57,474 nt of DNA from Ignavibacteria bacterium. GTDB taxonomy: Bacteria > Bacteroidota > Ignavibacteria > Tepidaquicellales > OLB5. The notes under the pieces are model-generated. The model made no database searches, had not been told where the DNA came from, and saw only the letters and a list, made by a program, of their open reading frames with translations. This document shows positions 4,765-19,961 of this stretch, in pieces (the stretch's first letter is position 1; every line of letters starts with the position of its first letter). The translations under genes were made by a program, and so were the position numbers. The stretch is from positions 1 to 57,474 of the forward strand of contig JAIOIK010000114.1 in the NCBI GenBank assembly GCA_019912545.1, given 5' to 3'.

Positions 4765-5634
4765 ATGCATAAAAGCTTAGTTGAAAGTTCTTTTAAATAC
4801 TGCGAGGAGATTGCTAAAGGTCATTACGAGAATTTTCCGGTCGCTTCGCTTCTGCTCCCAAAGGAAAAACGGAAGTATGTCTATGCAGTATATGCATATG
4901 CAAGGGCTGCAGATGATTTTGCAGATGAGCCCGGAATCGAAGGAGGAAATGAAAAAAGACTGGCATTACTTGATGAATGGCATGGTAAATTGAAAGATTG
5001 TTACAATGGCAAGACATATGACCCGATATTCATAGCTTTAAGGCAGACTGTTGATGATAATAAGATTCCCATTGAACCACTTGAAAACCTTTTAAAGGCT
5101 TTCAGGCAGGATGTAGTGAGGTGCAGGTATGATGATTTTAATGAAATTTTGGATTACTGTGTAAACTCAGCAAACCCGGTTGGAAGGCTTGTTTTAATGA
5201 TTTTCGGCTGCCATGATGAAGAGTTCTTTAAGTATTCCGATAAAATTTGCACAGCGCTTCAGCTTACGAATTTCTGGCAGGATGTACAGATCGACCTGCA
5301 AAAAAACAGGGTGTATTTACCTGAGGAGGATCTGCTGAAATTTGGATATAGTTATGAAGAGTTGTTTGATAAGAAATACAATGATAGTTTTAAGAGCCTG
5401 ATGGGATTTGAAGTAGAAAGGACTCAGAAGCTCTTTGATGAAGGTAAAAAGCTTATTGAACTAACTGCTCAAACTAGCGGACTCAAGAAGCTTTCAAAAG
5501 AACTGAAACTGACATGGCTTGGCGGCTCAAAGATACTGGAAAAGATAAGAGAAATTGAATATGATGTATTTACTAAAAGACCGAAAATAGGATTCACAGA
5601 TAAATTAACTATTTTTCTAAGTTCAAGATTCTGA
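4765..5634 (+). CDS. hpnC: hydroxysqualene synthase HpnC
   Basis: 289 aa, member of the squalene/phytoene synthase family. In the HpnCDE route HpnC converts presqualene diphosphate, made by HpnD, into hydroxysqualene. The N-terminus SLVESSFKYCEEIAKGHYENFP is typical of HpnC. The first aspartate-rich motif is at D50-D54 (ADDFADE) and the second at about D173-D177 (NFWQDVQIDLQKNR), the two Mg-diphosphate binding sites; both are intact and the length is normal. First gene of an hpnC-hpnD-hpnE operon; its TGA stop overlaps the presumed CTG start of hpnD. The HpnC/HpnD split rests on gene order and on this N-terminal signature. Confidence 0.9.
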   Translation: MHKSLVESSFKYCEEIAKGHYENFPVASLLLPKEKRKYVYAVYAYARAADDFADEPGIEGGNEKRLALLDEWHGKLKDCYNGKTYDPIFIALRQTVDDNKIPIEPLENLLKAFRQDVVRCRYDDFNEILDYCVNSANPVGRLVLMIFGCHDEEFFKYSDKICTALQLTNFWQDVQIDLQKNRVYLPEEDLLKFGYSYEELFDKKYNDSFKSLMGFEVERTQKLFDEGKKLIELTAQTSGLKKLSKELKLTWLGGSKILEKIREIEYDVFTKRPKIGFTDKLTIFLSSRF

Positions 5635-6482
5635 AAAAAAACACACTGAACGATCACATTGAAATAACGCAAAACAGCAAAACGAATTTTCTGTATTCGT
5701 TCTCACTGCTGCCCAAAGATAAGTATGAGGCCATAAATACGGTTTACGCCTTTTGCAGGCAGACCGATGACATTGTTGATAATGAGCTTGAAACAACTGA
5801 GGTGAAGTTCAAAAAAATTCGCCAGTGGCGTGAAGAGTTTGAAAAAGGGCTTCTTGGTGAATCAAGTTATGCGCTTTTAAACCAGGTTAATAAGATAATC
5901 AAGAAGTTCAGCATACCGCTTGAGCCTTTTTTTGAGCTTATCAAAGGTATGGAAGCCGATCTGCAGGTCTCGCGCTATAAAGATTTTGCGACACTGTACC
6001 AATATTGCTTCCGCGCGGCGGCTACTGTTGGGCTCATGTGCATTGAGATATTCGGTTACAAAAATGATACTGCTAAAGATTATGCGGTGAATCTTGGCAT
6101 AGCACTGCAGTTAACCAACATTTTGCGTGATATCAAGTTTGATGCTTTGAACGGCAGAATATATCTTCCGGAAGAGGACATGAAAAGATTCGGATATACA
6201 GAAGATGACCTTTTGAATTTCAGGTATAATGAATCCTTTGTTAAGCTTATGGAGTTTGAGTGTAAACGGGCAAGAGAGTACTTTGAAAAAGCAAACAACT
6301 GCTTTGTCAAAGAAAACCGTAAACTGCTCTTCCCTGCCCGAATAATGGAGAAGATATATTTTAATATACTGGTTAAGATCGAAAAGATGAATTATAATGT
6401 TTTCGGCAAGAAGGCAAAAGTATCGAAATTAAGGAAGCTGTATTATACATTTGGTGTTTTTGTGAAGTATAAACTGGCTTGA
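5631..6482 (+). CDS. hpnD: presqualene diphosphate synthase HpnD, probable CTG start
   Basis: About 283 aa. It condenses two farnesyl diphosphates to presqualene diphosphate. The first ATG/GTG/TTG in frame is GTG 5802, but conserved sequence continues upstream of it: FLYSFSLLPKDKYEAINTVY, then FCRQTDDIVD with the first Asp motif at D46-D50. The frame is open back to a TAA at 5601-5603 and has no ATG, GTG or TTG between, so translation must begin at a rare codon. CTG 5631 is preferred because it overlaps the hpnC TGA stop; ATT 5628 and ATT 5604 are alternatives. The second motif NILRDIKFDALNGR is intact. Starting at 5802 would remove the first catalytic motif. Confidence 0.85.
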   Translation: MKKNTLNDHIEITQNSKTNFLYSFSLLPKDKYEAINTVYAFCRQTDDIVDNELETTEVKFKKIRQWREEFEKGLLGESSYALLNQVNKIIKKFSIPLEPFFELIKGMEADLQVSRYKDFATLYQYCFRAAATVGLMCIEIFGYKNDTAKDYAVNLGIALQLTNILRDIKFDALNGRIYLPEEDMKRFGYTEDDLLNFRYNESFVKLMEFECKRAREYFEKANNCFVKENRKLLFPARIMEKIYFNILVKIEKMNYNVFGKKAKVSKLRKLYYTFGVFVKYKLA

Positions 6483-6515
6483 TAAATTAAGTATTCAATT
6501 CAATGATAGGTTTAT

Positions 6516-7835
6516 ATGATGGATACTGATGAAGGTTTTAAAAATACAGTAACAGTCATAGGCGGAGGAATCGCAGGGCTTTCTTCTGCGGTCTTCCTGG
6601 CGGAAAGAGGTTTTAAAGTTACTTTGTATGAAGCGTCTCCAAAACTTGGAGGCAGAGCTTATTCGTTCGTTGATAATACTATTGGTGCAGTTTTGGATAA
6701 CGGCCAGCACATTCTGGCAAGCTGGTACGAAAATACATTTGATTATCTGAAGATAATCGGCTCATTTGATAAGTTATCATTCCAGAATCAGCTTGAAGTT
6801 AATTTTGCAGATCAAAATGGCATGATTTACCGCTTCAAATGCCCGAAGCTTCCTCCCCCATTACATTTACTGGCGGGAATAATGAAGTTTAAGGCGCTTG
6901 GCTCAAAGGATAAACTTGCATTAATAAGGCTGGTGAGATTCATAAAGAATAAGAAGCTTACAAGGGACAAATTATCTGAGTTGAACACCGATAAACTGTT
7001 CAGTATGACGGGACAAACTGAGAGGCTGATTGAAAACTTCTGGAAACCGTTCATCGTAGCAGTTTTCAATGCGTCACCGGATAATACCAGCGCTCTTTTA
7101 TTTGCAGATATGATTAGGAAGGGTTTCCTCGAAAAAGGCGGCTCAAATCTGGTTTTACCAAACGATAATTTAACTGATATATTCGTAAAACCTGCAGAAG
7201 AGTTTCTTAAGAGCAAGAATTGTGAAGTTATTTTTAAGAAGCGAATTGCAAAAATTATCATTGAGGGTAATATCATAACTTCATTATTAGATGAAGATAA
7301 CAGAGAAATCAAAAGTAGTTTTTATATTAGCGCAGTTCCGTTCTTTGAATTTGAAAAGTTGTTTGTAAATGAGCTTTATCATGGCGGCCTGGAAACTTCA
7401 CCAATTGTTAATATCCATTTAAAGTTTGATAAGGATATTGATGAAATCTTCAGCGAGCGATTCGTTGGGCTGCTTGGAAGCGAAGTTCAGTGGGCCTTTA
7501 AAGTGAAAAGTGACCAGTTATGTCTTGTTATTAGCGCGGCACGCAAAATAGCCGAAATGAGCAAAGAACAGATCATAGATCTGGCAGTAAATGAGCTTCA
7601 TTATGCATTTCCGAGGCTGAAAAGTGCGAAAATAACAGGAAGCAGAGTGATTAAAGAAATGAAAGCTACATTTATTCCAAATAGTCATTCAATTTCAGCC
7701 AGGCCGATCAGCAAGACGGTTATCAAAAACCTGTTTATTGCAGGTGACTGGGCAGATACAGGGCTCCCTGCTACTATTGAAGGAGCAATTAAGAGCAGTA
7801 AGACATGTGTAAATGAGTTATTGAAAAGTATATAG
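6516..7835 (+). CDS. hpnE: squalene-associated FAD-dependent desaturase HpnE
   Basis: 439 aa, flavin amine oxidase/phytoene desaturase family. HpnE reduces hydroxysqualene to squalene, completing the three-step route from farnesyl diphosphate. The dinucleotide-binding motif VIGGGIAGLSSAVFLAERG is at about residues 14-32, followed by the acidic ribose-binding end LYEAS and the GGRAYS motif. The C-terminal FAD motif FIAGDWADTGLPATIEGAIKS is complete. It follows hpnD by 33 bases. Squalene probably feeds hopanoids or other polycyclic lipids; no squalene-hopene cyclase is in this window. ATG 6516 is used; ATG 6519 is an equivalent alternative. Confidence 0.93.
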   Translation: MMDTDEGFKNTVTVIGGGIAGLSSAVFLAERGFKVTLYEASPKLGGRAYSFVDNTIGAVLDNGQHILASWYENTFDYLKIIGSFDKLSFQNQLEVNFADQNGMIYRFKCPKLPPPLHLLAGIMKFKALGSKDKLALIRLVRFIKNKKLTRDKLSELNTDKLFSMTGQTERLIENFWKPFIVAVFNASPDNTSALLFADMIRKGFLEKGGSNLVLPNDNLTDIFVKPAEEFLKSKNCEVIFKKRIAKIIIEGNIITSLLDEDNREIKSSFYISAVPFFEFEKLFVNELYHGGLETSPIVNIHLKFDKDIDEIFSERFVGLLGSEVQWAFKVKSDQLCLVISAARKIAEMSKEQIIDLAVNELHYAFPRLKSAKITGSRVIKEMKATFIPNSHSISARPISKTVIKNLFIAGDWADTGLPATIEGAIKSSKTCVNELLKSI

Positions 7836-7888: not shown

Positions 7889-9703
7889 ATGGGACATCTA
7901 AACCAAAAAGAAGATTCAAATGCCGCAACGGTAAGTGCACCGGTTGGTATTAATCTTAAAAAATCTGAAAGCAAAGAAGCTGAAATTCAGCGTATGCTGC
8001 TTGAAGAAAGAATGCGACTTGAAAAGGAATACGGAGTTGGTGCAAAACCAATAGACCATTTCAAGAAACCACTGGAACATACTTTCACCAAAGATCAAAG
8101 AGCTACAACCACTATTCTCTTTGGCGGTTTAACATGGAAGCATGAAAAGCTGATAAAAGGCGTTCTTGAAGGCTTAGGATATAACGCAAGCGAGATACCG
8201 GTTCCTGATAAAAGAGCTTTCCAGTTAGGTAAAGAATACGGAAATAATGGACAATGCAATCCGACCTACTTCACAGTTGGGAATCTGGTTCAGTACCTGC
8301 AGTCACTTGAAGAAAGCGGAATGTCAAAGCAGGATATTATAGATAAATATGTATTCTTTACAGCTGGTGCATGCGGGCCGTGCAGGTTCGGAATGTATGA
8401 AGCTGAATACCGCTTAGCGCTCAGGAATTCCGGATTTGACGGATTCAGAGTATTAATCTTCCAGCAGACCGGAGGATTGGAACAGGATGAACTTGAAGCA
8501 GGTCTGGAAATGAACCTCGACTTCTTCCTTGGCATCATAAACGCAATGAATGTTGGTGATATCGTCAATGATATAGCTTACCAGATAAGGCCATATGAAG
8601 TAGTTCCGGGCGAAACTGATAAAGTTCTTGCTGAATGCATGGAAATGATGTATCACAAGATGAAATCAAAGAAGTATTTCGATTTCAACAGCAAGCTTGG
8701 GGCGCTTATTAAGAAAGTACCGGGCACAAATTATATACAGCGTTTTGTTGAGCAGATGACAAGCGACTATTATGTTGAAACCGTACTTGCAATAAGAGGT
8801 AAATTCAACGATGTGAAAGTTGACCGCACAAGAGTTAAGCCTATCTGCAAAGTAACAGGCGAATTCTGGGCTCAGACAACTGAGGGCGATGGTAACTTCA
8901 ATATGTTCCCCTTCCTCGAAAGAGAAGGAGCTCAATTGCTAATAGAGCCAATTGCAACATGGATATTATACATGCTTCACCAGGCTAAGAATATGTACCA
9001 TGACAGAAAAGGACTTAAAGAAGGCGAAGAAGATCCAAAAAACTACCAGGTACTTAAAAAATTAAAGAATCTAACTGATTACAAAAAAACAGTAACAGTT
9101 CTTACTCTCGCTGAAAAAGTATTCGAAAGAGAATATAACCGTATCCGCGACGCATTTGACGGTATGCCGCATAAACTTGCTAACCAGCTTGAAATGCAGA
9201 GGCTTGGCCACCCATTCTACAATTCACGTGTAGAAGGCGGCGAGGGACATCTTGAAATAGCAAAGAATATCTATTATGCTAATAATGATCTTTGCCACAT
9301 GGTACTTTCGCTTAAGCCATTCGGATGCATGCCTTCGACACAGTCTGATGGCGTTCAGTCAGCAGTTACAAGTATGTTCAAAGATATGATATTTATTCCG
9401 ATTGAAACCTCTGGTGAAGGCGATGTTAATGCTCACTCAAGAGTGCAAATGGCTCTTGGCGAAGCTAAGGCAAAGGCTAAGCTTGAATTCAAGAAATGCA
9501 TGGATGCAACCGGTTACACAATTGATGAAGTAAGGGCATATGTCGAAGCTAACGATTACTTACAGAGGCCGTTCTACAGAATTGGCCACAGGAAAGGAAT
9601 CGTAGGTATCGCTGCTAACTTCGTAATGGATGTAACTGAGCTGATGAAAAAAGACGGTATAAAACCTGTTGCATTAAAAACTAAAGAAGAAGTAACAGCA
9701 TAG
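7889..9703 (+). CDS. 2-hydroxyacyl-CoA dehydratase-like protein (COG3581 type)
   Basis: 604 aa. After a polar N-terminus of about 60 residues it carries the region TTTILFGGLTWKHEKLIKGVLEGLGY, the GQCNPTYFTVGN motif and TAGACGPCRFGMYEAEYR, all typical of the component that in many bacteria is fused to the C-terminus of giant BadF/HgdC-like activator proteins. The cysteines in GQC, ACGPC and FGCMPST are likely Fe-S ligands. The known superfamily performs ATP-driven low-potential one-electron chemistry; the substrate here is unknown. A good Shine-Dalgarno (AAGGAAGGG) lies 9-17 bases before the ATG. The presumed partner starts at 10947, with a secreted-protein gene between. Confidence 0.75.
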   Translation: MGHLNQKEDSNAATVSAPVGINLKKSESKEAEIQRMLLEERMRLEKEYGVGAKPIDHFKKPLEHTFTKDQRATTTILFGGLTWKHEKLIKGVLEGLGYNASEIPVPDKRAFQLGKEYGNNGQCNPTYFTVGNLVQYLQSLEESGMSKQDIIDKYVFFTAGACGPCRFGMYEAEYRLALRNSGFDGFRVLIFQQTGGLEQDELEAGLEMNLDFFLGIINAMNVGDIVNDIAYQIRPYEVVPGETDKVLAECMEMMYHKMKSKKYFDFNSKLGALIKKVPGTNYIQRFVEQMTSDYYVETVLAIRGKFNDVKVDRTRVKPICKVTGEFWAQTTEGDGNFNMFPFLEREGAQLLIEPIATWILYMLHQAKNMYHDRKGLKEGEEDPKNYQVLKKLKNLTDYKKTVTVLTLAEKVFEREYNRIRDAFDGMPHKLANQLEMQRLGHPFYNSRVEGGEGHLEIAKNIYYANNDLCHMVLSLKPFGCMPSTQSDGVQSAVTSMFKDMIFIPIETSGEGDVNAHSRVQMALGEAKAKAKLEFKKCMDATGYTIDEVRAYVEANDYLQRPFYRIGHRKGIVGIAANFVMDVTELMKKDGIKPVALKTKEEVTA

Positions 9704-9719
9704 GCACGAAAAACTGAAA

Positions 9720-10937
9720 ATGACAAGAAATAATCTGGAAATTTCGGTAATTGTATTGTTGATCTCTGTTTGCAGTGCAAACTCACAGTGGACACAAATC
9801 TCAACCATTCCTGTGAGCAAGATCAGTGCCATTAAGTTTTTTAATGAAACTACTGGTTTTGCTTGCGGCGGCGGAGTGTGGAAAACCGTTGATGGAGGGT
9901 ACAACTGGATACAGATGTTAAACGCTTCAACAAATTCTATCTGTTTCGTGGACTCAATGAATGGCTACGCTGGGGGTGTTCCTTCAATAATCTATAAGAC
10001 CACCAATGGCGGCTTAAACTGGTCATCATATTCTCTAGTGAGTGGTTTGGGAGGTGTAGATGCAATGTCATTCTTCAATGCTTTAACAGGTCTATCGATT
10101 GGATTTCACGGAATTATCAACAGAACAAGCAATGCAGGAACAACCTGGCAAAGGCAGGACACAACATATTTCCAGGAGCAAGAAGCTATATCAACTTTAG
10201 ATAACGGTCACGGCTGGATAGTTGGTTTTGGTGTATATGAGATAATAAAGAAGACTACTAATTATGGTCTAAGCTGGGTCTTTCAAAGTCCCGGTGCAAT
10301 AGGCGCATTAAACGCTGTCTTTGCCTTTGATAATAACCTAATTTATGTTTGCGGACACTATGGTACGATCAGAAGATCAACTACAGGCGGAGGCAACTGG
10401 ATTAAGTTGGATAGTATGACGAATAGGCATTTAAGAGGCGTTCATTTTACTAGTTCAACATCCGGTACAGTTGTTGGCGAGAGTGGTACTATTTTGAGAA
10501 CAACTAATTCCGGCGCAAACTGGTTTTTCCAATCATCCCCTACTTCAAGCAGTTTGTTTGCAGTTCAATACTTAAATGAAGAAACAGGATGGATTGGCGG
10601 AAATAATGGAGTGATTTTAAGAACTACTAATGGAGGCTTTACATTCATAAATCAGGTAAATACCGCTGTCCCAAATGACTACCAACTATTTCAAAACTAT
10701 CCTAATCCTTTTAACCCTAAAACTATAATAACATTCTCTGTTCTCAGATCCGGGCGGGTAAACTTAACTATTTATAACAGCTCAGGTGAAGAAATATGGA
10801 GTCATACGAAGAACAATTTGAATCCGGGAAAATATGAAATTGAGTGGAATGCCGAAGGATATGCCAGCGGAGTATATTTTTATACAATGGAATCAAATGA
10901 TGTTTTTTTAACCAAGAAAATGATCTTAATCAAATAA
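9720..10937 (+). CDS. secreted beta-propeller protein with T9SS sorting domain
   Basis: 405 aa. Signal peptide at about residues 1-22 (ISVIVLLISVCSANS). The mature part contains repeated W-x-K-T-x-x-G-G-x-x-W units (for example TVDGGYNWIQ, TTNGGLNWSS, TTNSGANWFF), the pattern of YCF48/BNR-like beta-propeller blades; at least six are visible. The C-terminus from about residue 318 is a type A T9SS sorting domain: NYPNPFNPKTIITFSV, a central IYNSSGEEIW strand and a final MILIK. It is therefore expected outside the outer membrane. Oddly, it sits between two genes whose products belong to one cytoplasmic enzyme system, only 16 bases after one and 9 before the other. Confidence 0.88.
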   Translation: MTRNNLEISVIVLLISVCSANSQWTQISTIPVSKISAIKFFNETTGFACGGGVWKTVDGGYNWIQMLNASTNSICFVDSMNGYAGGVPSIIYKTTNGGLNWSSYSLVSGLGGVDAMSFFNALTGLSIGFHGIINRTSNAGTTWQRQDTTYFQEQEAISTLDNGHGWIVGFGVYEIIKKTTNYGLSWVFQSPGAIGALNAVFAFDNNLIYVCGHYGTIRRSTTGGGNWIKLDSMTNRHLRGVHFTSSTSGTVVGESGTILRTTNSGANWFFQSSPTSSSLFAVQYLNEETGWIGGNNGVILRTTNGGFTFINQVNTAVPNDYQLFQNYPNPFNPKTIITFSVLRSGRVNLTIYNSSGEEIWSHTKNNLNPGKYEIEWNAEGYASGVYFYTMESNDVFLTKKMILIK

Positions 10938-10946
10938 AAGTTTAAT

Positions 10947-13900
10947 ATGACAAATCAGAAAAATCCGCTTTATATTGGGTTTGATGTAGGCTCAACTACA
11001 GTTAAGGCTGTGGTTATGGATATCACAAATGATAAGATCCTCTGGAGTGATTACCAGAGGCATGATACTAAACAGCCTGAAAAATCATTAGAGTTGTTAA
11101 AAGATGCTGAGTCAAAGCTTGGTAAAGATGCTTTTGAAGGAGCACGTATATTCATCACCGGCTCAGGCGGAAGTAATATTGGACGCTTCCTCGGAGCTAA
11201 GTTCGTTCAGGAAGTTAATGCAGTATCTCTGGCAGTAGAGAAATTCTATCCCAAGACGCTTTCTGTAATAGAGCTTGGCGGACAGGATGCGAAGATCATC
11301 GTATTCAAAGAAGACCCCGAGACCGGTAAGAAGAAAAAGATACCTTCGATGAATGACAAATGTGCCGGAGGTACAGGCGCTGTTATTGATAAGATCAATG
11401 CAAAGTTGAAAATTCCGGCTGATGAACTCTGCAATATGGGATATAACGGAATCAGGCTCCACCCTGTTGCCGGTAAATGCGGTGTATTTGCCGAAACCGA
11501 TATTAACGGGTTGCAGAAATCAGGTGTACCCGCTGATGAGCTTATGGCAAGTCTGTTTGAATCTATCATTCAGCAAAATCTTTCAGTATTAACACGCGGC
11601 CATACATTAAGGCCCGAGGTATTACTGCTTGGCGGACCGAACTGTTACATCAAAGGCATGATGGATTGCTGGCGTTCGAACATTCCCAAGATGTGGGATG
11701 AAAGAAATGTTCCGTATGATAAAAATGTCCCGATCGAAGAGCTTATACGTGTTCCCGAAAATGCTCAGTACTTTGCAGCTATTGGTGCTATTGAATACGG
11801 AAAAGAAGAAGAACCGGAGATCGGAGTTTACAAAGGTTATTCTGATCTGGAGTATTATATAAATGTTGGCAGAGGCGAAGAGAAGAAGAAGTTAATGAAA
11901 CTCTCCGGCGGCGGCGGTCTTTATAAAGATGAAGACGAGCTGGCAAGGTTCAGGGAAAAATTCAAAATTCCTAAATTTACTGCTGCAGCGTTTAAGCCGG
12001 GTGAAGTTGTGAAGGGTTTTATTGGACTCGACGGCGGTTCTACATCAACAAAAGCAGCGCTAATTTCTCTTGATAAACAGGTATTAGTAAAATCTTATCA
12101 GCTTTCTAAAGGTAATCCAATTGAAGATACTGTAGAGATACTGCAGAAATTAAGAGACCAGGTTGAGGAACAGGGTGCAACTCTTGAAGTACTTGGAATT
12201 GGTACAACAGGTTATGCCAAAGATATTTTAAAGGACGTTTTGCATGGAGATGTAGCTCTTGTTGAAACTGTTGCTCATACTCAAGCGGCTCTGCATTTCT
12301 ATTCCGATACGGACGTTATTGTTGATGTTGGCGGCCAGGATATTAAGCTAATTATCCTTGACCAGGGCCGTGTAACTGATTTCAAGCTTAATACACAATG
12401 CTCAGCAGGTAACGGGTATTTCCTGCAATCAACAGCGCAGGGATTCGGCTATGCAGTTGAAGACTTCGCTGAAGTCGCTTTTTCAGCTAAGCAATATCCC
12501 ACATTTGGCTATGGCTGCGCTGTATTTATGCAGAGCGATATAGTTGACTTCCAGAGGCAGGGATGGAAACCTGAAGAAATTATGGCGGGTCTCGCAAACG
12601 TATTGCCAAAGAATATTTGGCTTTATGTTTCGCAGATACCAAATCTAGCCAAGCTTGGCAGGAATTTTGTACTGCAGGGCGGCACTCAGCACAATCTTGC
12701 CGCAGTGAAGACGCAGGTTGATTTCATTACCGATAGATTCAAAGGCAGTGGTATCGATCCGAATGTGTTTGTTCACAAACATACCGGAGAAGCCGGCGCT
12801 ATTGGCTGCGGTATTGAAGCTGCAAGGCTTTATGATAACGGCATGAGGACTCAGTTCATCGGACTGGATAAGGTCGCAAGAATTATGTTCAAAACCACAA
12901 GAAATGAATCCACAAGATGCTATTTCTGTAAGAATAAATGCTTAAGGACTTTCATAGATGTAGCTACTGAAGAAAAGGCTATTCCTTTTGTTACAGATGA
13001 ATCAATAGAATTCCCGAAGGATAAGATCGTTAATCCGGATTCCAAAGTTCCTATAGTTGACGGAACTCAAAGGCTAATTATCGCAACATGCGAAAAGGGT
13101 ACGGTTGAAGATCTTAGTTCGATGAAGGATATCAAAAAGGGACTGGATGCTATTAAAGATATTACTCCGAATATTGTTGAGATCGCAGCTACGGAGGTAT
13201 GGAAATCATGCTCACCTGCAATTGTGAAAGATGAAATTCCGGTTCTAACAAAACTTGAAGAGTTAAAACTTAGGTTTGATAAAAAAGCAAAAGCAAAGCG
13301 TGATAAGAGAGTTGAACTGATGAAAAAGCGCGAGAAGATCGTGATCGGTATTCCGAGAGCGCTAAACATGTATCAGCACACGCCGTTCTTCACCGCTTAT
13401 TTCGAAGCGCTTGGAATAAAGCCTTCAAATATTGTTTACTCTGAATACACAAGTGAAGAGCTGTACAAAGAAGGAGCAAAACGCGGCGCAATTGACCCCT
13501 GTTTCCCTTCAAAGATAGGTATTCCGCACATTCATAACCTTATGTATAAGATCAACAAGAAGAAGAAGCTGGACTATATCTTCTTCCCCGTTGTTGATAC
13601 TATGCCTTCAGATTTGATCTATGCCCAGGAACATCATGCCTGTCCGACAGTAACGGCAACTTCGGAAGCAGTTAAAGCTGCATTTATTAAAGAAGGTGAC
13701 ATATTCAAAGAATTTGGAATAGAGTATGTTAACACATATTTAAGAATGACAGAAGAGAAGCTTTGTGCAAGACAGATGTTTGAGGAGTGGAAAGATAAGC
13801 TCGGACTTTCCGAAGAGGAAAACAACAAGGCTGTAGATGAAGCTTTTAAAGCCTATTACAGGTATGTTGATATGCTTAAGAAGAAGTCACGCGAAGCACT

Positions 13901-14636
13901 GGATATGCTTGAAAAAGAGAATAAGCTTGGTATAGTTATTCTTGCAAGGCCATATCATAATGACCCGGGCGTAAATCATGAGATACTTGAGGAATTCCAG
14001 AAGCTTGGATACCCGGTGTTCTTCCAGGATTGTTTACCTACGGATGAAGATATGTTAGAGAGACTCTTTGGTGATGATGTGAAAGCAGGACTCATTAAAG
14101 GACCTATGGATGTGGGCGATGTATGGAAGAATTCATACAGCGAAAACACCACAAGGAAAGTTTGGGCTGCCAAATATACTTCCAGGCATCCAAATCTTGT
14201 GGCGCTTGAGCTTTCATCGTTCAAATGCGGCCATGACGCTCCAATTTATACCGTAGTAGAGGAAATAGTTTCCATCAGCGGAACGCCTTACTTCTCTTTC
14301 AAAGATATTGATGAGAATAAGCCTACCGGTTCAATAAAGATACGCGTTGAGACCATTCACTACTTCCTGAAACGTTACCGCGAAGATATGGTAGCTAAGA
14401 GCATGAAACTATTGACGATTGAAGAAAAGATGAAGGAATTTGAAGATAAGGTAAGGAAGCAGCATGAATTGCAGAAAAAACTGAATGCAATTCATAAAGC
14501 ACAGGGTACCGGACAGTATCACACGGGAAGCAAAGACGGAAATGCTGTTGAGATAGATCTAAGCAAGGTGAAAAAGGGAGTTTCTGAAAACTCTGAAACG
14601 AAAAAGATTGAAGAAACAGAAGAAGTGATAGCTTAA
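10947..14636 (+). CDS. giant double-ASKHA activator of a 2-hydroxyacyl-CoA dehydratase-like enzyme
   Basis: 1229 aa. Two BadF/BadG/HgdC-like ATPase domains are in tandem. The first (about 6-290) has IGFDVGSTTVKAVV, NDKCAGGTGAVID and GKCGVFAETDI; the second (about 350-630) has IGLDGGSTSTKAALI, NTQCSAGNGYFLQ and GYGCAVFMQSDI. In HgdC (archerase) the cysteines at these positions hold one [4Fe-4S] cluster between two identical subunits; here one chain could supply all four. A CYFCKNKC motif follows, then a DUF2229/COG3580 domain (about 790-1150) containing IGIPRALNMYQHTPFF and DPCFPSKIGIPHIHN. The C-terminus is charged and probably disordered. It likely fires electrons into the protein at 7889; the reaction is unknown. 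Confidence 0.8.
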   Translation: MTNQKNPLYIGFDVGSTTVKAVVMDITNDKILWSDYQRHDTKQPEKSLELLKDAESKLGKDAFEGARIFITGSGGSNIGRFLGAKFVQEVNAVSLAVEKFYPKTLSVIELGGQDAKIIVFKEDPETGKKKKIPSMNDKCAGGTGAVIDKINAKLKIPADELCNMGYNGIRLHPVAGKCGVFAETDINGLQKSGVPADELMASLFESIIQQNLSVLTRGHTLRPEVLLLGGPNCYIKGMMDCWRSNIPKMWDERNVPYDKNVPIEELIRVPENAQYFAAIGAIEYGKEEEPEIGVYKGYSDLEYYINVGRGEEKKKLMKLSGGGGLYKDEDELARFREKFKIPKFTAAAFKPGEVVKGFIGLDGGSTSTKAALISLDKQVLVKSYQLSKGNPIEDTVEILQKLRDQVEEQGATLEVLGIGTTGYAKDILKDVLHGDVALVETVAHTQAALHFYSDTDVIVDVGGQDIKLIILDQGRVTDFKLNTQCSAGNGYFLQSTAQGFGYAVEDFAEVAFSAKQYPTFGYGCAVFMQSDIVDFQRQGWKPEEIMAGLANVLPKNIWLYVSQIPNLAKLGRNFVLQGGTQHNLAAVKTQVDFITDRFKGSGIDPNVFVHKHTGEAGAIGCGIEAARLYDNGMRTQFIGLDKVARIMFKTTRNESTRCYFCKNKCLRTFIDVATEEKAIPFVTDESIEFPKDKIVNPDSKVPIVDGTQRLIIATCEKGTVEDLSSMKDIKKGLDAIKDITPNIVEIAATEVWKSCSPAIVKDEIPVLTKLEELKLRFDKKAKAKRDKRVELMKKREKIVIGIPRALNMYQHTPFFTAYFEALGIKPSNIVYSEYTSEELYKEGAKRGAIDPCFPSKIGIPHIHNLMYKINKKKKLDYIFFPVVDTMPSDLIYAQEHHACPTVTATSEAVKAAFIKEGDIFKEFGIEYVNTYLRMTEEKLCARQMFEEWKDKLGLSEEENNKAVDEAFKAYYRYVDMLKKKSREALDMLEKENKLGIVILARPYHNDPGVNHEILEEFQKLGYPVFFQDCLPTDEDMLERLFGDDVKAGLIKGPMDVGDVWKNSYSENTTRKVWAAKYTSRHPNLVALELSSFKCGHDAPIYTVVEEIVSISGTPYFSFKDIDENKPTGSIKIRVETIHYFLKRYREDMVAKSMKLLTIEEKMKEFEDKVRKQHELQKKLNAIHKAQGTGQYHTGSKDGNAVEIDLSKVKKGVSENSETKKIEETEEVIA

Positions 14637-18237: not shown

Positions 18238-19215
18238 TTAATTTGATAATACCTTTTTAAATTCTTCGGTAAGTACCGGTAATATTTCCAGCGCATCGCC
18301 AACAATTCCGTAATCAGCAACCTGGAATATCGGAGCATCCTTATCTTTATTTATGGCCACAATACATTTAGAAGACGACATACCAGCCAAATGCTGAATT
18401 GCACCGCTTATGCCTACGGCAATATACAGGTTTGGAGCAACAGTCTTACCTGTTTGCCCAACCTGATCTGAGTGCGGCCTCCAACCTGCATCAACAATGG
18501 CTCTTGAGGCACCTGCTGCGCCCCCCAGAACTTTTGCCAGCTCTTCCACAAGGTGGAAGTTCTCAGGGCCCTTTAATCCCCTGCCACCTGAAACAACAAT
18601 ATTCGCCTCAGTAACATCCAGTTTCTCATTGTTAACAACAATCTCCTTAACCTGCGATTTGAAGTCATCATCACTGATATCCGGAGTAACTTTTACAACC
18701 TCAGTGGTAACACCATCAACTTTAACAGGCTTAAAAACATTAGGCCTTAGAGTAAATATCTTTATGGTCGAGCATACCTTCACGTCAACCATCGCCTTAC
18801 CTGCATAAACAGGCCTGGTGGCTATTATGTTTCCGCTTTCAACTTTGATCTCGGTACAATCTGCAACTAATCCAGCTTCAAGCTTTGCTGAAATCCTTGG
18901 AGAAACATCTTTCCCCATTGATGTTGCCGAAAGCAATATTACATCTGCGCCAGACTCCTTACAAGCCTGTGCAATGATCTTTGAATAAGCTGTAGTTGAA
19001 TACTTCTCAAACCTTTGGTCTTCGGTAACAATTGCTTTTTTGATGCCATAAGCTCCAAGCTCTGAGGCAATACCTGAAAGCGCACTACCTATCAAAAAAG
19101 CTACTGCTTCACTGCCTGTTTCTCCGGCAAGCTTCACAGCTGCTGAAGCAGTTTCGAACCCTGAATTCTTAATTTTATTATCACGTGTTTCTATGAATGC
19201 CAGTACTTTTCCCAT
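18238..19215 (-). CDS. etfA: electron transfer flavoprotein alpha subunit
   Basis: 325 aa. EtfA binds the redox-active FAD and, with EtfB, passes electrons from acyl-CoA dehydrogenases to the quinone pool. The C-terminal FAD domain (about 195-310) has VVSGGRGLKGPENFHLVEEL, the SRAIVDAGWRPHSDQVGQTGK motif and LYIAVGISGAIQHLAGM, all intact. The N-terminal domain is normal. Its start overlaps the etfB stop by one base (19215). A role in beta-oxidation is supported by the 3-hydroxyacyl-CoA dehydrogenase at 49231, though that gene is distant. Confidence 0.95.
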   Translation of the reverse strand: MGKVLAFIETRDNKIKNSGFETASAAVKLAGETGSEAVAFLIGSALSGIASELGAYGIKKAIVTEDQRFEKYSTTAYSKIIAQACKESGADVILLSATSMGKDVSPRISAKLEAGLVADCTEIKVESGNIIATRPVYAGKAMVDVKVCSTIKIFTLRPNVFKPVKVDGVTTEVVKVTPDISDDDFKSQVKEIVVNNEKLDVTEANIVVSGGRGLKGPENFHLVEELAKVLGGAAGASRAIVDAGWRPHSDQVGQTGKTVAPNLYIAVGISGAIQHLAGMSSSKCIVAINKDKDAPIFQVADYGIVGDALEILPVLTEEFKKVLSN

Positions 19216-19961
19216 TATATAACTTTCGCTTCCTCTCTTAAAAGTTTAACCAGTTCCGGAACTGCTGAAACATCTGTTCCTACGATCTTGCCTTTGGATT
19301 TTGGTTTAGGCAGCGTCATAGCAATTATTTCTGTTTTATTCCCGGTGTAAGTTGGCTGTCTTTCTTCTATTGGTCTTGATTTAGCCTGCATAATTCCTTT
19401 CAGGTTAGGGTAACGTGGATTATTGAGTCCTCTTTGTGTAGTGATAGCAGCAGGAAGCGTTGCTTCAACTACTTCTTTTCCGCCTTCAATTTCTCTCTCA
19501 CATGTGATCTTATTTCCATCAACTTCTATACCTACAACCACTGTAATTGAGGGGATACCCAGCATTTCGGATACCAAAGAGCCAACCTGTGAATCATCGT
19601 AATCTATAGATTGCTTTCCGAAAAATATTACATCGGGGTTTATCTCTTTTAGTAAATCTGCAATATTCCGTGCAACAGCATATGAATCCATTTCAACATC
19701 TGTTTTTACGTGGATCCCTTTTTCGATCCCCATTGCATAAGATTTCTTTATCGCTTCTTTATTTGAATCTTTGCCGACGGATACTACGATTGTTTCACCA
19801 CCGTGTTTTTCTTTAAACTGAAGTGCGGCTTCTACTGCAAACTCATCGTAAGGATTGATAATGTATGTAACCCCGGAAGGATCTATTGATTTACCGTCAG
19901 GACCTATTTTTACTTTAGTTGTGGTATCCGGAACCTGAGAAACACAAACAGCAATTTTCAT
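19215..19961 (-). CDS. etfB: electron transfer flavoprotein beta subunit
   Basis: 248 aa. It has the usual EtfB N-terminus MKIAVCVSQVPDTTTKVKI and NPYDEFAVEAALQFKE. The region DVIFFGKQSIDYDDSQVGSLVSEMLGIPSI corresponds to the AMP-binding and subunit-contact segment (classical ETFs bind AMP here, whereas bifurcating ETFs bind FAD; motif reading alone does not separate them). The loop ITTQRGLNNPRYPNLKGIMQAKSR is the recognition loop for partner dehydrogenases. First gene of the etfBA operon. A hairpin terminator at 20101-20129 isolates it from the upstream protease gene. Confidence 0.95.
   Translation of the reverse strand: MKIAVCVSQVPDTTTKVKIGPDGKSIDPSGVTYIINPYDEFAVEAALQFKEKHGGETIVVSVGKDSNKEAIKKSYAMGIEKGIHVKTDVEMDSYAVARNIADLLKEINPDVIFFGKQSIDYDDSQVGSLVSEMLGIPSITVVVGIEVDGNKITCEREIEGGKEVVEATLPAAITTQRGLNNPRYPNLKGIMQAKSRPIEERQPTYTGNKTEIIAMTLPKPKSKGKIVGTDVSAVPELVKLLREEAKVI

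What the first reader, a model, noticed from the sequence alone, without database searches (positions are those of the whole stretch)
10947..14636. Two HgdC-like ATPase domains in one chain, with both pairs of cluster cysteines
Archerase holds a [4Fe-4S] cluster at its dimer interface, two Cys per subunit. Here each of two fused domains keeps its Cys pair (NDKCAGG / GKCGVF and NTQCSAG / GYGCAVF), so one chain could build a pseudo-dimer around one cluster. With the COG3580-like domain it forms an ATP-powered low-potential electron injector for the 604-aa protein. The substrate is unknown; relatives include double-cubane cluster proteins that reduce small molecules, so an unusual reduction is plausible.
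Basis: partly seen in the sequence, partly recalled or inferred. Interest (0 to 1): 0.5.

Follow-up and report, generated by a model that had tools for sequence, protein, structure and literature searches.

The report
Bacterial ether-lipid synthase, two-gene form
The gene is most likely half of a two-protein, ATP-driven enzyme that turns the ester bonds of membrane lipids into ether bonds, a known bacterial enzyme type; its placement right after squalene-making genes in this group of bacteria is the unexpected part.

Summary
In detail: the 1229-aa protein (F) has two complete HgdC-type ATPase domains, both cysteine pairs (invariant in 57 of 57 aligned homologues) and DUF2229. The 604-aa protein (S) is its partner: F lies downstream in 74 of 80 S relatives.

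The substrate guess is not supported. F+S has the Act1-Act2-Red1 + Red2 layout of PlsA/PlsR plasmalogen synthase and Ger glycerol ester reductase, shares 14 cysteines with PlsA-type homologues, and F is sister to them. Most likely it reduces glycerolipid esters to ethers, as already proposed in print for Solibacter PlsAR homologues.

Additions: a distant single-chain form (T) has lost or altered the ATP motifs of its first ATPase domain but keeps both cysteine pairs in 22 of 22, which favours one shared cluster. In Ignavibacteriales S follows hpnE in 20 of 20 genomes where this could be read, and T in 9 of the 12 T loci of one family (one contig ends; two genomes lack HpnE), although hopene cyclase is nearly absent.

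Cysteine distances, substrate and product are untested.

The parts
10947..14636 (+). F, 1229 aa: Act1-Act2-(CxxCxxxC...C)-Red1, PlsA/Ger-type chain
10962..11816 (+). Act1, aa 6-290, HgdC-type ATPase domain with C139 and C178
   Evidence: its profile scores 160-204 bits against Act1 of four PlsA-type proteins
12012..12842 (+). Act2, aa 356-632, HgdC-type ATPase domain with C485 and C524
   Evidence: fold match to MbdQ chain 9gai_D, Z 29.4, rmsd 2.0 over 257 residues
12909..13091 (+). four-cysteine segment C658, C661, C665, C715: probable extra [4Fe-4S] site (inferred)
   Evidence: Cys in 12 of 12 proteins aligned
13329..14381 (+). Red1 (DUF2229 and following residues), aa about 795-1145, with C852, C899, C1094
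   Evidence: its fold was barely tested
7889..9703 (+). S, 604 aa: Red2 / PlsR-like partner, invariant C123, C162, C165, C480
   Evidence: DCCP/HAD/BCR-like fold
9720..10937 (+). Ycf48-like repeat protein with a T9SS sorting tail, lying between S and F; not part of the system
   Evidence: in most order loci that show both, S and F are direct neighbours
4765..5634 (+). HpnC, squalene synthase (context)
   Evidence: TIGR03464, 314.8 bits, cut-off 250.45
5652..6482 (+). HpnD, presqualene diphosphate synthase (context); similarity starts before the listed ORF 5802-6482
   Evidence: the short ORF scores 213.5 bits, under the cut-off of 278.6
6516..7835 (+). HpnE, hydroxysqualene dehydroxylase (context); its stop is 53 bases before S
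   Evidence: TIGR03467, 372.5 bits, cut-off 283.05

Best explanation
F and S together are an ATP-dependent glycerolipid ester reductase of the PlsA/PlsR-Ger type. Act1 and Act2 form a pseudo-dimer holding one [4Fe-4S] cluster. ATP drives single low-potential electrons from that cluster into the Red1(F)-Red2(S) pair, where a cluster with an open coordination site makes a ketyl radical at the acyl ester of a phospholipid. Protonation, further reduction and loss of water give a vinyl or alkyl ether. Shown here: domain order, intact ATP motifs in both Act domains, invariant cysteines, pairing of F with S, sister relationship to PlsA-type homologues. Inferred: one shared cluster, electron route, ester substrate, ether product (alkyl ether slightly more likely than vinyl ether).
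For: Same Pfam architecture (two BcrAD_BadFG stretches + DUF2229) as homologues from Listeria, Fusobacterium, Collinsella and Haliovirga; a review names Listeria as carrying plsA/plsR orthologues (PMC9702350, part 1 of 3 read). F's Act1 and Act2 profiles score 160-204 and 165-197 bits against the matching domains of those four, against 89-137 for Act2 of the four T proteins printed and 43-71 (best stretch each) for three HgdC-type proteins of the genome's own benzoyl-CoA reductase locus. F is sister to the four, SH-aLRT 100, with the T clade and L095 outside. Cysteines 139, 178, 485, 524, 658, 661, 665, 715, 852, 899, 1094 of F and 123, 165, 480 of S are Cys in 12 of 12 proteins aligned for each half. 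The S profile finds the Red2 end of Haliovirga, Listeria and Collinsella and the separate Fusobacterium Red2 (E 9e-29 to 2e-13), more weakly the T chains (7e-16 to 1e-6), and no protein of the benzoyl-CoA reductase locus at E 0.01. F lies downstream of S in 74 of 80 relatives. In print: PlsA-type genes give plasmalogen in E. coli (PMC12838417, passages and section 16); Ger of Desulfatibacillum gives alkyl ethers in E. coli (PMC11150832, passages); PlsAR homologues were proposed for ester-to-ether conversion in Solibacter usitatus (PMC10087280, section 18). Three S relatives here are titled Candidatus Solibacter (L070, L084, L090).
Against: F is only 30-32% identical to the four PlsA-type proteins compared, low enough for a change of substrate. 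None of the biochemically tested sequences (C. perfringens, E. faecalis, T. maritima, D. alkenivorans) was at hand, so the comparison rests on homologues. No curated plasmalogen-synthase family hit F or S. S is 200 aa longer than Fusobacterium Red2 and comes before F, whereas in Fusobacterium the activase gene comes first. The tree is a quick one and warns that long branches meet. No lipid data for this organism were seen.
Confidence: 0.78

Rival explanations
1. DCCP-like reductase of small molecules at a double-cubane cluster.
For: S's five best Foldseek matches are DCCP chains (7yyl_A E 2.1e-3, prob 1.00). HAD, BzdNO and DCCP chains score about alike by VIA-align (Z 9.9, 9.0, 8.9), so the fold does not choose.
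Against: S has four invariant Cys against six for the [8Fe-9S] cluster of BzdN (PMC11971306, section 8). F's ATPase domains group with PlsA-type Act domains. No double_cubane NCBIfam hit for F or S at E 1e-3.
Confidence: 0.08
2. Dehydratase or reductase of an acyl-CoA (HAD or benzoyl-CoA reductase type).
For: Shared superfamily fold and cysteines.
Against: The genome already has a separate class I benzoyl-CoA reductase locus with BcrB and BcrC over their cut-offs; no acyl-CoA gene was recognised among the most widespread neighbour clusters of the 80 loci (45 clusters listed, judged by eye); F's domains group with PlsA-type ones.
Confidence: 0.06
3. The enzyme acts on a squalene-pathway intermediate or on squalene itself, hence its place after hpnCDE.
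For: S directly follows hpnE in 20 of 20 genomes of the order where this could be read, and T does so in 9 of the 12 T loci of family f2.
Against: In the 60 S loci outside the 20 counted as Ignavibacteria, 54 of them with at least 1.5 kb before S, no HpnE homologue was clustered; one (L085) has a squalene/phytoene synthase homologue. T loci outside the order: 0 of 6 beside hpn genes (L097 has only 0.2 kb upstream). No hpn gene is annotated beside the four PlsA-type relatives. Isolated C=C bonds are poor one-electron acceptors (recalled).
Confidence: 0.05

Closest known systems
PlsA/PlsR plasmalogen synthase (Clostridium perfringens two-gene type; Enterococcus, Lactococcus, Bifidobacterium single-chain type)
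   Same: Act1-Act2-Red1 and Red2 domains, 14 cysteines shared with PlsA-type homologues, gene pair; PMC12838417 (passages, section 16) names Act1, Act2, Red1, Red2
   Different: 30-32% identity to the PlsA-type homologues compared here; Red2 gene first and 604 aa long instead of 404 in Fusobacterium; an extra invariant Cys162 in S that Listeria, Fusobacterium and Collinsella lack and Haliovirga has
Ger glycerol ester reductase (Thermotoga maritima, Desulfatibacillum alkenivorans)
   Same: PlsA-like enzyme with two activation domains giving alkyl ethers (PMC11150832, PMC13274423, passages)
   Different: D. alkenivorans Ger is given as one 159-kDa protein (PMC11150832); no sequence held here, so no direct comparison
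Class I benzoyl-CoA reductase (BcrABCD, BzdNOPQ, MbdONPQ)
   Same: two HgdC-type subunits share one bridging cluster and drive two Red-type subunits (PMC11971306, section 4); fold match of Act2 to MbdQ
   Different: separate subunits, CoA-thioester substrate, double cubane in BzdN
HgdC archerase / 2-hydroxyacyl-CoA dehydratase
   Same: ATPase fold, nucleotide motifs and the Cys pair
   Different: homodimer and separate dehydratase (recalled), no fusion
DCCP:DCCP-R
   Same: fold of S and of the ATPase
   Different: double-cubane cluster, six Cys in the related BzdN site; S has four invariant Cys

Membership tests
PlsA/PlsR-Ger lipid ester reductase | Act1-Act2-Red1 order with a Red2 partner or fusion | tested here: met
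PlsA/PlsR-Ger lipid ester reductase | Cluster cysteines of Act1, Act2, Red1 and Red2 | tested here: met
   12 of 12 proteins aligned at 11 positions of F and 3 of S
PlsA/PlsR-Ger lipid ester reductase | Groups with biochemically tested members in a tree | tested here: inconclusive
   sister to Listeria, Fusobacterium, Collinsella, Haliovirga homologues; tested sequences were not held
PlsA/PlsR-Ger lipid ester reductase | Forms vinyl or alkyl ether lipid from the ester | not testable with these tools
   needs expression and lipid analysis
HgdC/BcrAD archerase ATPases | Nucleotide motifs and two cluster Cys per domain | tested here: met
   both domains, 57 of 57 rows
HgdC/BcrAD archerase ATPases | One [4Fe-4S] cluster bridging two ATPase units | not testable with these tools
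Double-cubane cluster protein (DCCP) | Six Cys ligands in one catalytic subunit | tested here: not met
   S: four invariant Cys in 80 rows. For F, with 3+4 Cys in and before Red1, the count alone is not decisive
Class I benzoyl-CoA reductase | Passes the curated BcrA, BcrD or BzdQ equivalog cut-offs | tested here: not met
   117.3 bits against 578, 77.1 against 312.85, 86.5 against 380.2

The most novel reading that the evidence does not exclude
In Ignavibacteriales, squalene synthesis without hopanoid cyclisation and ATP-driven ester-to-ether conversion of phospholipids form one membrane-building operon (hpnC-hpnD-hpnE plus ether-lipid synthase), giving a bacterial membrane with archaea-like ingredients. 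The slot for the ether-lipid synthase has been filled by two only distantly related forms, a two-protein one with two live ATPase domains and a single-chain one in which one ATPase domain is a nucleotide-dead half-site kept only to hold the cluster.
Probability: 0.4. Interest if true: 0.55.

Novelty: new member of a known kind. Interest (0 to 1): 0.36.

Why it matters
It replaces an 'unknown substrate' by a testable one, and it places a well-conserved two-gene clade of Acidobacteria, Ignavibacteria, Dadabacteria, Zixibacteria, Latescibacteria and Poribacteria beside the PlsA/Ger type. Acidobacteria are a suspected source of the brGDGT ether lipids used as temperature proxies, and how they make their ether bonds is still open (PMC13274423, PMC10087280). 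The hpnCDE link suggests that ether lipids and squalene are made together in Ignavibacteriales.

Tried and rejected
Small-molecule (DCCP) and acyl-CoA substrates: judged less likely, see rivals. A role set by conserved neighbours across phyla: none seen beyond the pair itself and a small protein. ETF genes at 18238-19961 were considered as electron donors; they are on the other strand, and ETF-alpha relatives were seen only in family f1 loci, in 2 of the 20 Ignavibacteria loci and in L074.

The published rule of thumb that two activation domains mark alkyl-ether (Ger) rather than vinyl-ether enzymes (PMC13274423, passages) does not decide here: the Listeria and Fusobacterium homologues also show two BcrAD_BadFG stretches.

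AlphaFold2 models were obtained (F residues 1-1200: pLDDT 79.3, pTM 0.68; S: pLDDT 78.0, pTM 0.78), but no coordinates were given out, and the ten-residue blocks holding C139, C178, C485 and C852 average pLDDT 53-63. Most VIA-align rows for F start at Act2, so the folds of Act1 and Red1 were barely tested. For S no Foldseek match reached E 0.001, and the best unrelated VIA row has Z 7.9, so its fold match is not strong by itself.

Paper searches: led to PMC11971306; to PMC5322559 (passages, selenium genes, not pertinent); led nowhere useful. Jackson 2021 and Sahonero-Canavesi 2022 are not held and are known only through papers that cite them.

Tree cautions: quick searches with SH-aLRT only. 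In the Act tree T-Act1 does not join F-Act1; it lies by the BCR rows on long branches, so a common origin of T's and F's Act1 was not shown. The tree warns of meeting long branches, naming T_L100 with T_L101, Haliovirga's pair with Listeria's pair, and the T side with the F rows; the join of F with the PlsA-type rows is not among those named. The form switch T/F needs 3 changes on the HpnE tree and 2 on the HpnD tree, but well-supported branches force only 1. In the larger T alignment the column of C658 does not line up (Cys in 1 of 22) and C661 is Cys in 21 of 22; counted within T alone the four are Cys in 22, 21, 22 and 22 of 22.
Full report
What is there. The ORF 10947-14636 (+) codes for 1229 aa, called F here. 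Pfam finds BcrAD_BadFG twice and DUF2229 once, and NCBIfam finds the acyl-CoA dehydratase activase domain twice. In the 57-row alignment (the window and 56 relatives that reach nearly full length) these four, seven more cysteines (658, 661, 665, 715, 852, 899, 1094) and nucleotide-motif residues of both ATPase domains are invariant. The 604-aa protein at 7889-9703 (S) has no Pfam or NCBIfam family. Its predicted fold comes nearest to DCCP (Foldseek prob 1.00, E 2e-3) and to HAD, BzdNO and DCCP chains (VIA Z 9.9 for 3o3n chain B, 284 residues, rmsd 4.8; best unrelated row 7.9). C123, C162, C165 and C480 of S are invariant in 80 rows (79 relatives and the window).

F and S belong together. A scan of genome contigs kept the best 80 of 352 stretches that encode an S relative (titles name Ignavibacteria, Bacteroidetes, Acidobacteria, Dadabacteria, Zixibacteriota, Latescibacterota, Poribacteria). 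F was found on the same strand in 72 of 80, and shorter F pieces in two more, L015 and L050: 74 of 80. Of the 72, 55 have F within 200 bases of S, 67 within 1.1 kb, and the widest gap is 7.0 kb in L027. Of the other six, four contigs end within 0.9 kb of S (L020, L023, L061, L075); L041 (2.0 kb left) and L055 (8 kb left) show no F. No other gene was seen as conserved across phyla around the pair, apart from a small protein listed below.

What it is. A plasmid-record search found 31 records with a match, 5 of them covering at least 80% of F in one place. Four relatives were fetched: Haliovirga (1449 aa), Collinsella (1479 aa, next to a TetR-type regulator), Listeria (1475 aa) and Fusobacterium (975 + 404 aa, two adjacent genes). 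Listeria is named in a review as carrying plsA and plsR orthologues (PMC9702350, part 1 of 3 read); I did not show that this protein is the one meant. All four have the same Pfam make-up as F. The layout Act1-Act2-Red1-Red2 and its activity in E. coli are described for plasmalogen synthases in PMC12838417 (passages and section 16). [quoted passage not shown]

Sequence tests of that filing. Profiles of F's Act1 and Act2 score 160-204 and 165-197 bits against the corresponding domain of these four proteins, and lower against T proteins and the benzoyl-CoA reductase locus. In the Act tree F's Act1 groups with their Act1 (SH-aLRT 99) and F's Act2 with their Act2 (98), so the tandem predates the split of these two. 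In a 39-row tree of the Act1-Act2-Red1 part F (12 rows) is sister to the four, SH-aLRT 100. All 11 F cysteines are Cys in 12 of 12 proteins aligned, and 3 of the 4 S cysteines in 12 of 12. Cys162 of S is shared with Haliovirga only among the nine non-S rows; it might close the fourth site of the Red2 cluster and leave Red1 as the substrate site (inference).

A second form. In the order of the window's genome 42 of 44 genomes have a DUF2229 protein; in a sample of the phylum 9 of 296 do. Some carry F, others a single chain of about 1430 aa, called T (22-24% identical to F in four compared). Twenty-two T proteins of at least 1380 aa were compared: 16 from the order and 6 from elsewhere in the phylum (L097, L098, L100-L103). 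They keep both pairs, C128/C166 and C427/C467 in L099 numbering, in 22 of 22. But Act1 of T has lost or altered its ATP motifs: D13 is Cys in 20 of 22, K20 is kept in 2 of 22, and D114 in none. Act2 of T keeps D362, S365, K369, D465 and K467 in 22 of 22. An ATPase domain without the usual ATP residues that still keeps its cluster cysteines is what one expects if both Cys pairs of one chain build one cluster. It is indirect.

Place in the genome. In the window S starts 53 bases after hpnE of an hpnC-hpnD-hpnE set (HpnC and HpnE over the curated cut-offs, HpnD's short ORF under it; in the T-type locus L133 HpnC is over, HpnD and HpnE are under by 1 and 12 bits). In the order, S is the gene after hpnE in 20 of 20 genomes where the DNA before S was assembled and read: G000, G271, G296, G297, G299, G300, G302, G306, G308, G315, G319, G320, G321, G323, G324, G329, G332, G333, G334, G335. 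A second S copy in G301 also follows hpnE. In the other F genomes the contig ends before this can be read, or, in G326, no S was seen in the stretch fetched. T loci of family f2: 12. Nine follow hpnE, eight with gaps of -16 to 19 bases, the ninth (G316) with its T frame split and the first piece next to hpnE; one contig ends at T (G313); two genomes (G330, G331) have no true HpnE (best E 6.5e-10 and 4.5e-9). Eight further T loci are in family f1 (seven genomes, six of which also carry F; G305 has T only). None was seen to follow hpnE; four of them have over 4 kb of upstream DNA, four too little. Outside the order 0 of 6 T loci lie beside hpn genes. The two genomes without DUF2229 (G309, 77% complete, and G328, 98%) have no true HpnE either. 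Taking E below 1e-20 as true HpnE, the table is 37 with both, 5 with DUF2229 only, 0 with HpnE only, 2 with neither; Fisher p 0.022, not corrected for relatedness. That threshold is mine: at E 0.001 the HpnE model also rings in all 14 control genomes, and only 28 of 44 genomes pass its curated cut-off. Squalene-hopene cyclase (PF13243) gave one weak match in 44 genomes (E 3.7e-4), while the same search rings in Bacillus subtilis among the controls. So these bacteria seem to make squalene without hopanoids, beside an ether-lipid synthase.

How novel. The architecture is known, and PlsAR homologues were already proposed to make ether bonds in Solibacter usitatus (PMC10087280, section 18). Three S relatives titled Candidatus Solibacter are among the 80; I did not show that they are the homologues of that paper. 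Whether the product is an alkyl or a vinyl ether cannot be told from sequence, as PMC13274423 and PMC11868695 (passages) also say. I found no paper joining hpnE with plsA or ger: search 42 (none for Ignavibacteri + squalene + hopanoid) and one search (40 papers, 20 listed, only the listing seen; none of the 20 has hpnE together with plsA, plasmalogen synthase or glycerol ester reductase).

Limits. No coordinates came with the models. Trees were quick ones. No lipid data for the organism were seen.

Noticed in passing
L097-L103, L133-L177 (22 T proteins): Single-chain PlsA/Ger-like proteins whose first ATPase domain has lost or altered the nucleotide motifs (D13 to Cys in 20 of 22) but keeps both cluster cysteines in 22 of 22.
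   Followed up: partly
window 4765-7835 and order-wide: hpnCDE present with no convincing squalene-hopene cyclase: one weak PF13243 match in 44 genomes of the order.
   Followed up: partly
L035, L046, L049, L062, L066, L071, L072, L080, L087, just after F: A conserved protein of about 90 aa without a significant Pfam or NCBIfam match follows F in 9 of 52 loci with over 400 bases beyond F (also in L059, which has less room), in Acidobacteria, Zixibacteriota, Poribacteria, Dadabacteria and Latescibacterota.
   Followed up: partly
G000:C81, locus L104 3318-16780: The same genome has a class I benzoyl-CoA reductase cluster: BcrB, BcrC and 6-oxocyclohex-1-ene-1-carbonyl-CoA hydratase over curated cut-offs, BcrD just under, BcrA under.
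   Followed up: partly
L104 6869-8722 (-): A 617-aa fusion of a 2-dehydropantoate 2-reductase-like domain (13-315) with an HgdC-type activase (357-598), both over cut-off, next to a HadB-like protein.
   Followed up: no
control genomes: DUF2229 proteins also ring in Thermus composti and Deinobacterium chartae, surprising for an oxygen-sensitive enzyme type if these are aerobes (lifestyle recalled).
   Followed up: no
window 5652-6482: HpnD is similar to a relative in one open stretch from 5652 on, so the listed ORF start at 5802 is too late.
   Followed up: yes
window 9720-10937; L147, L178, L146, L027: Genes lie between S and F in some Ignavibacteria (one of 405-408 aa in the window, L147 and L178; 673 aa in L146; several over 7 kb in L027); in the window it is a Ycf48-like protein with a T9SS tail.
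   Followed up: partly
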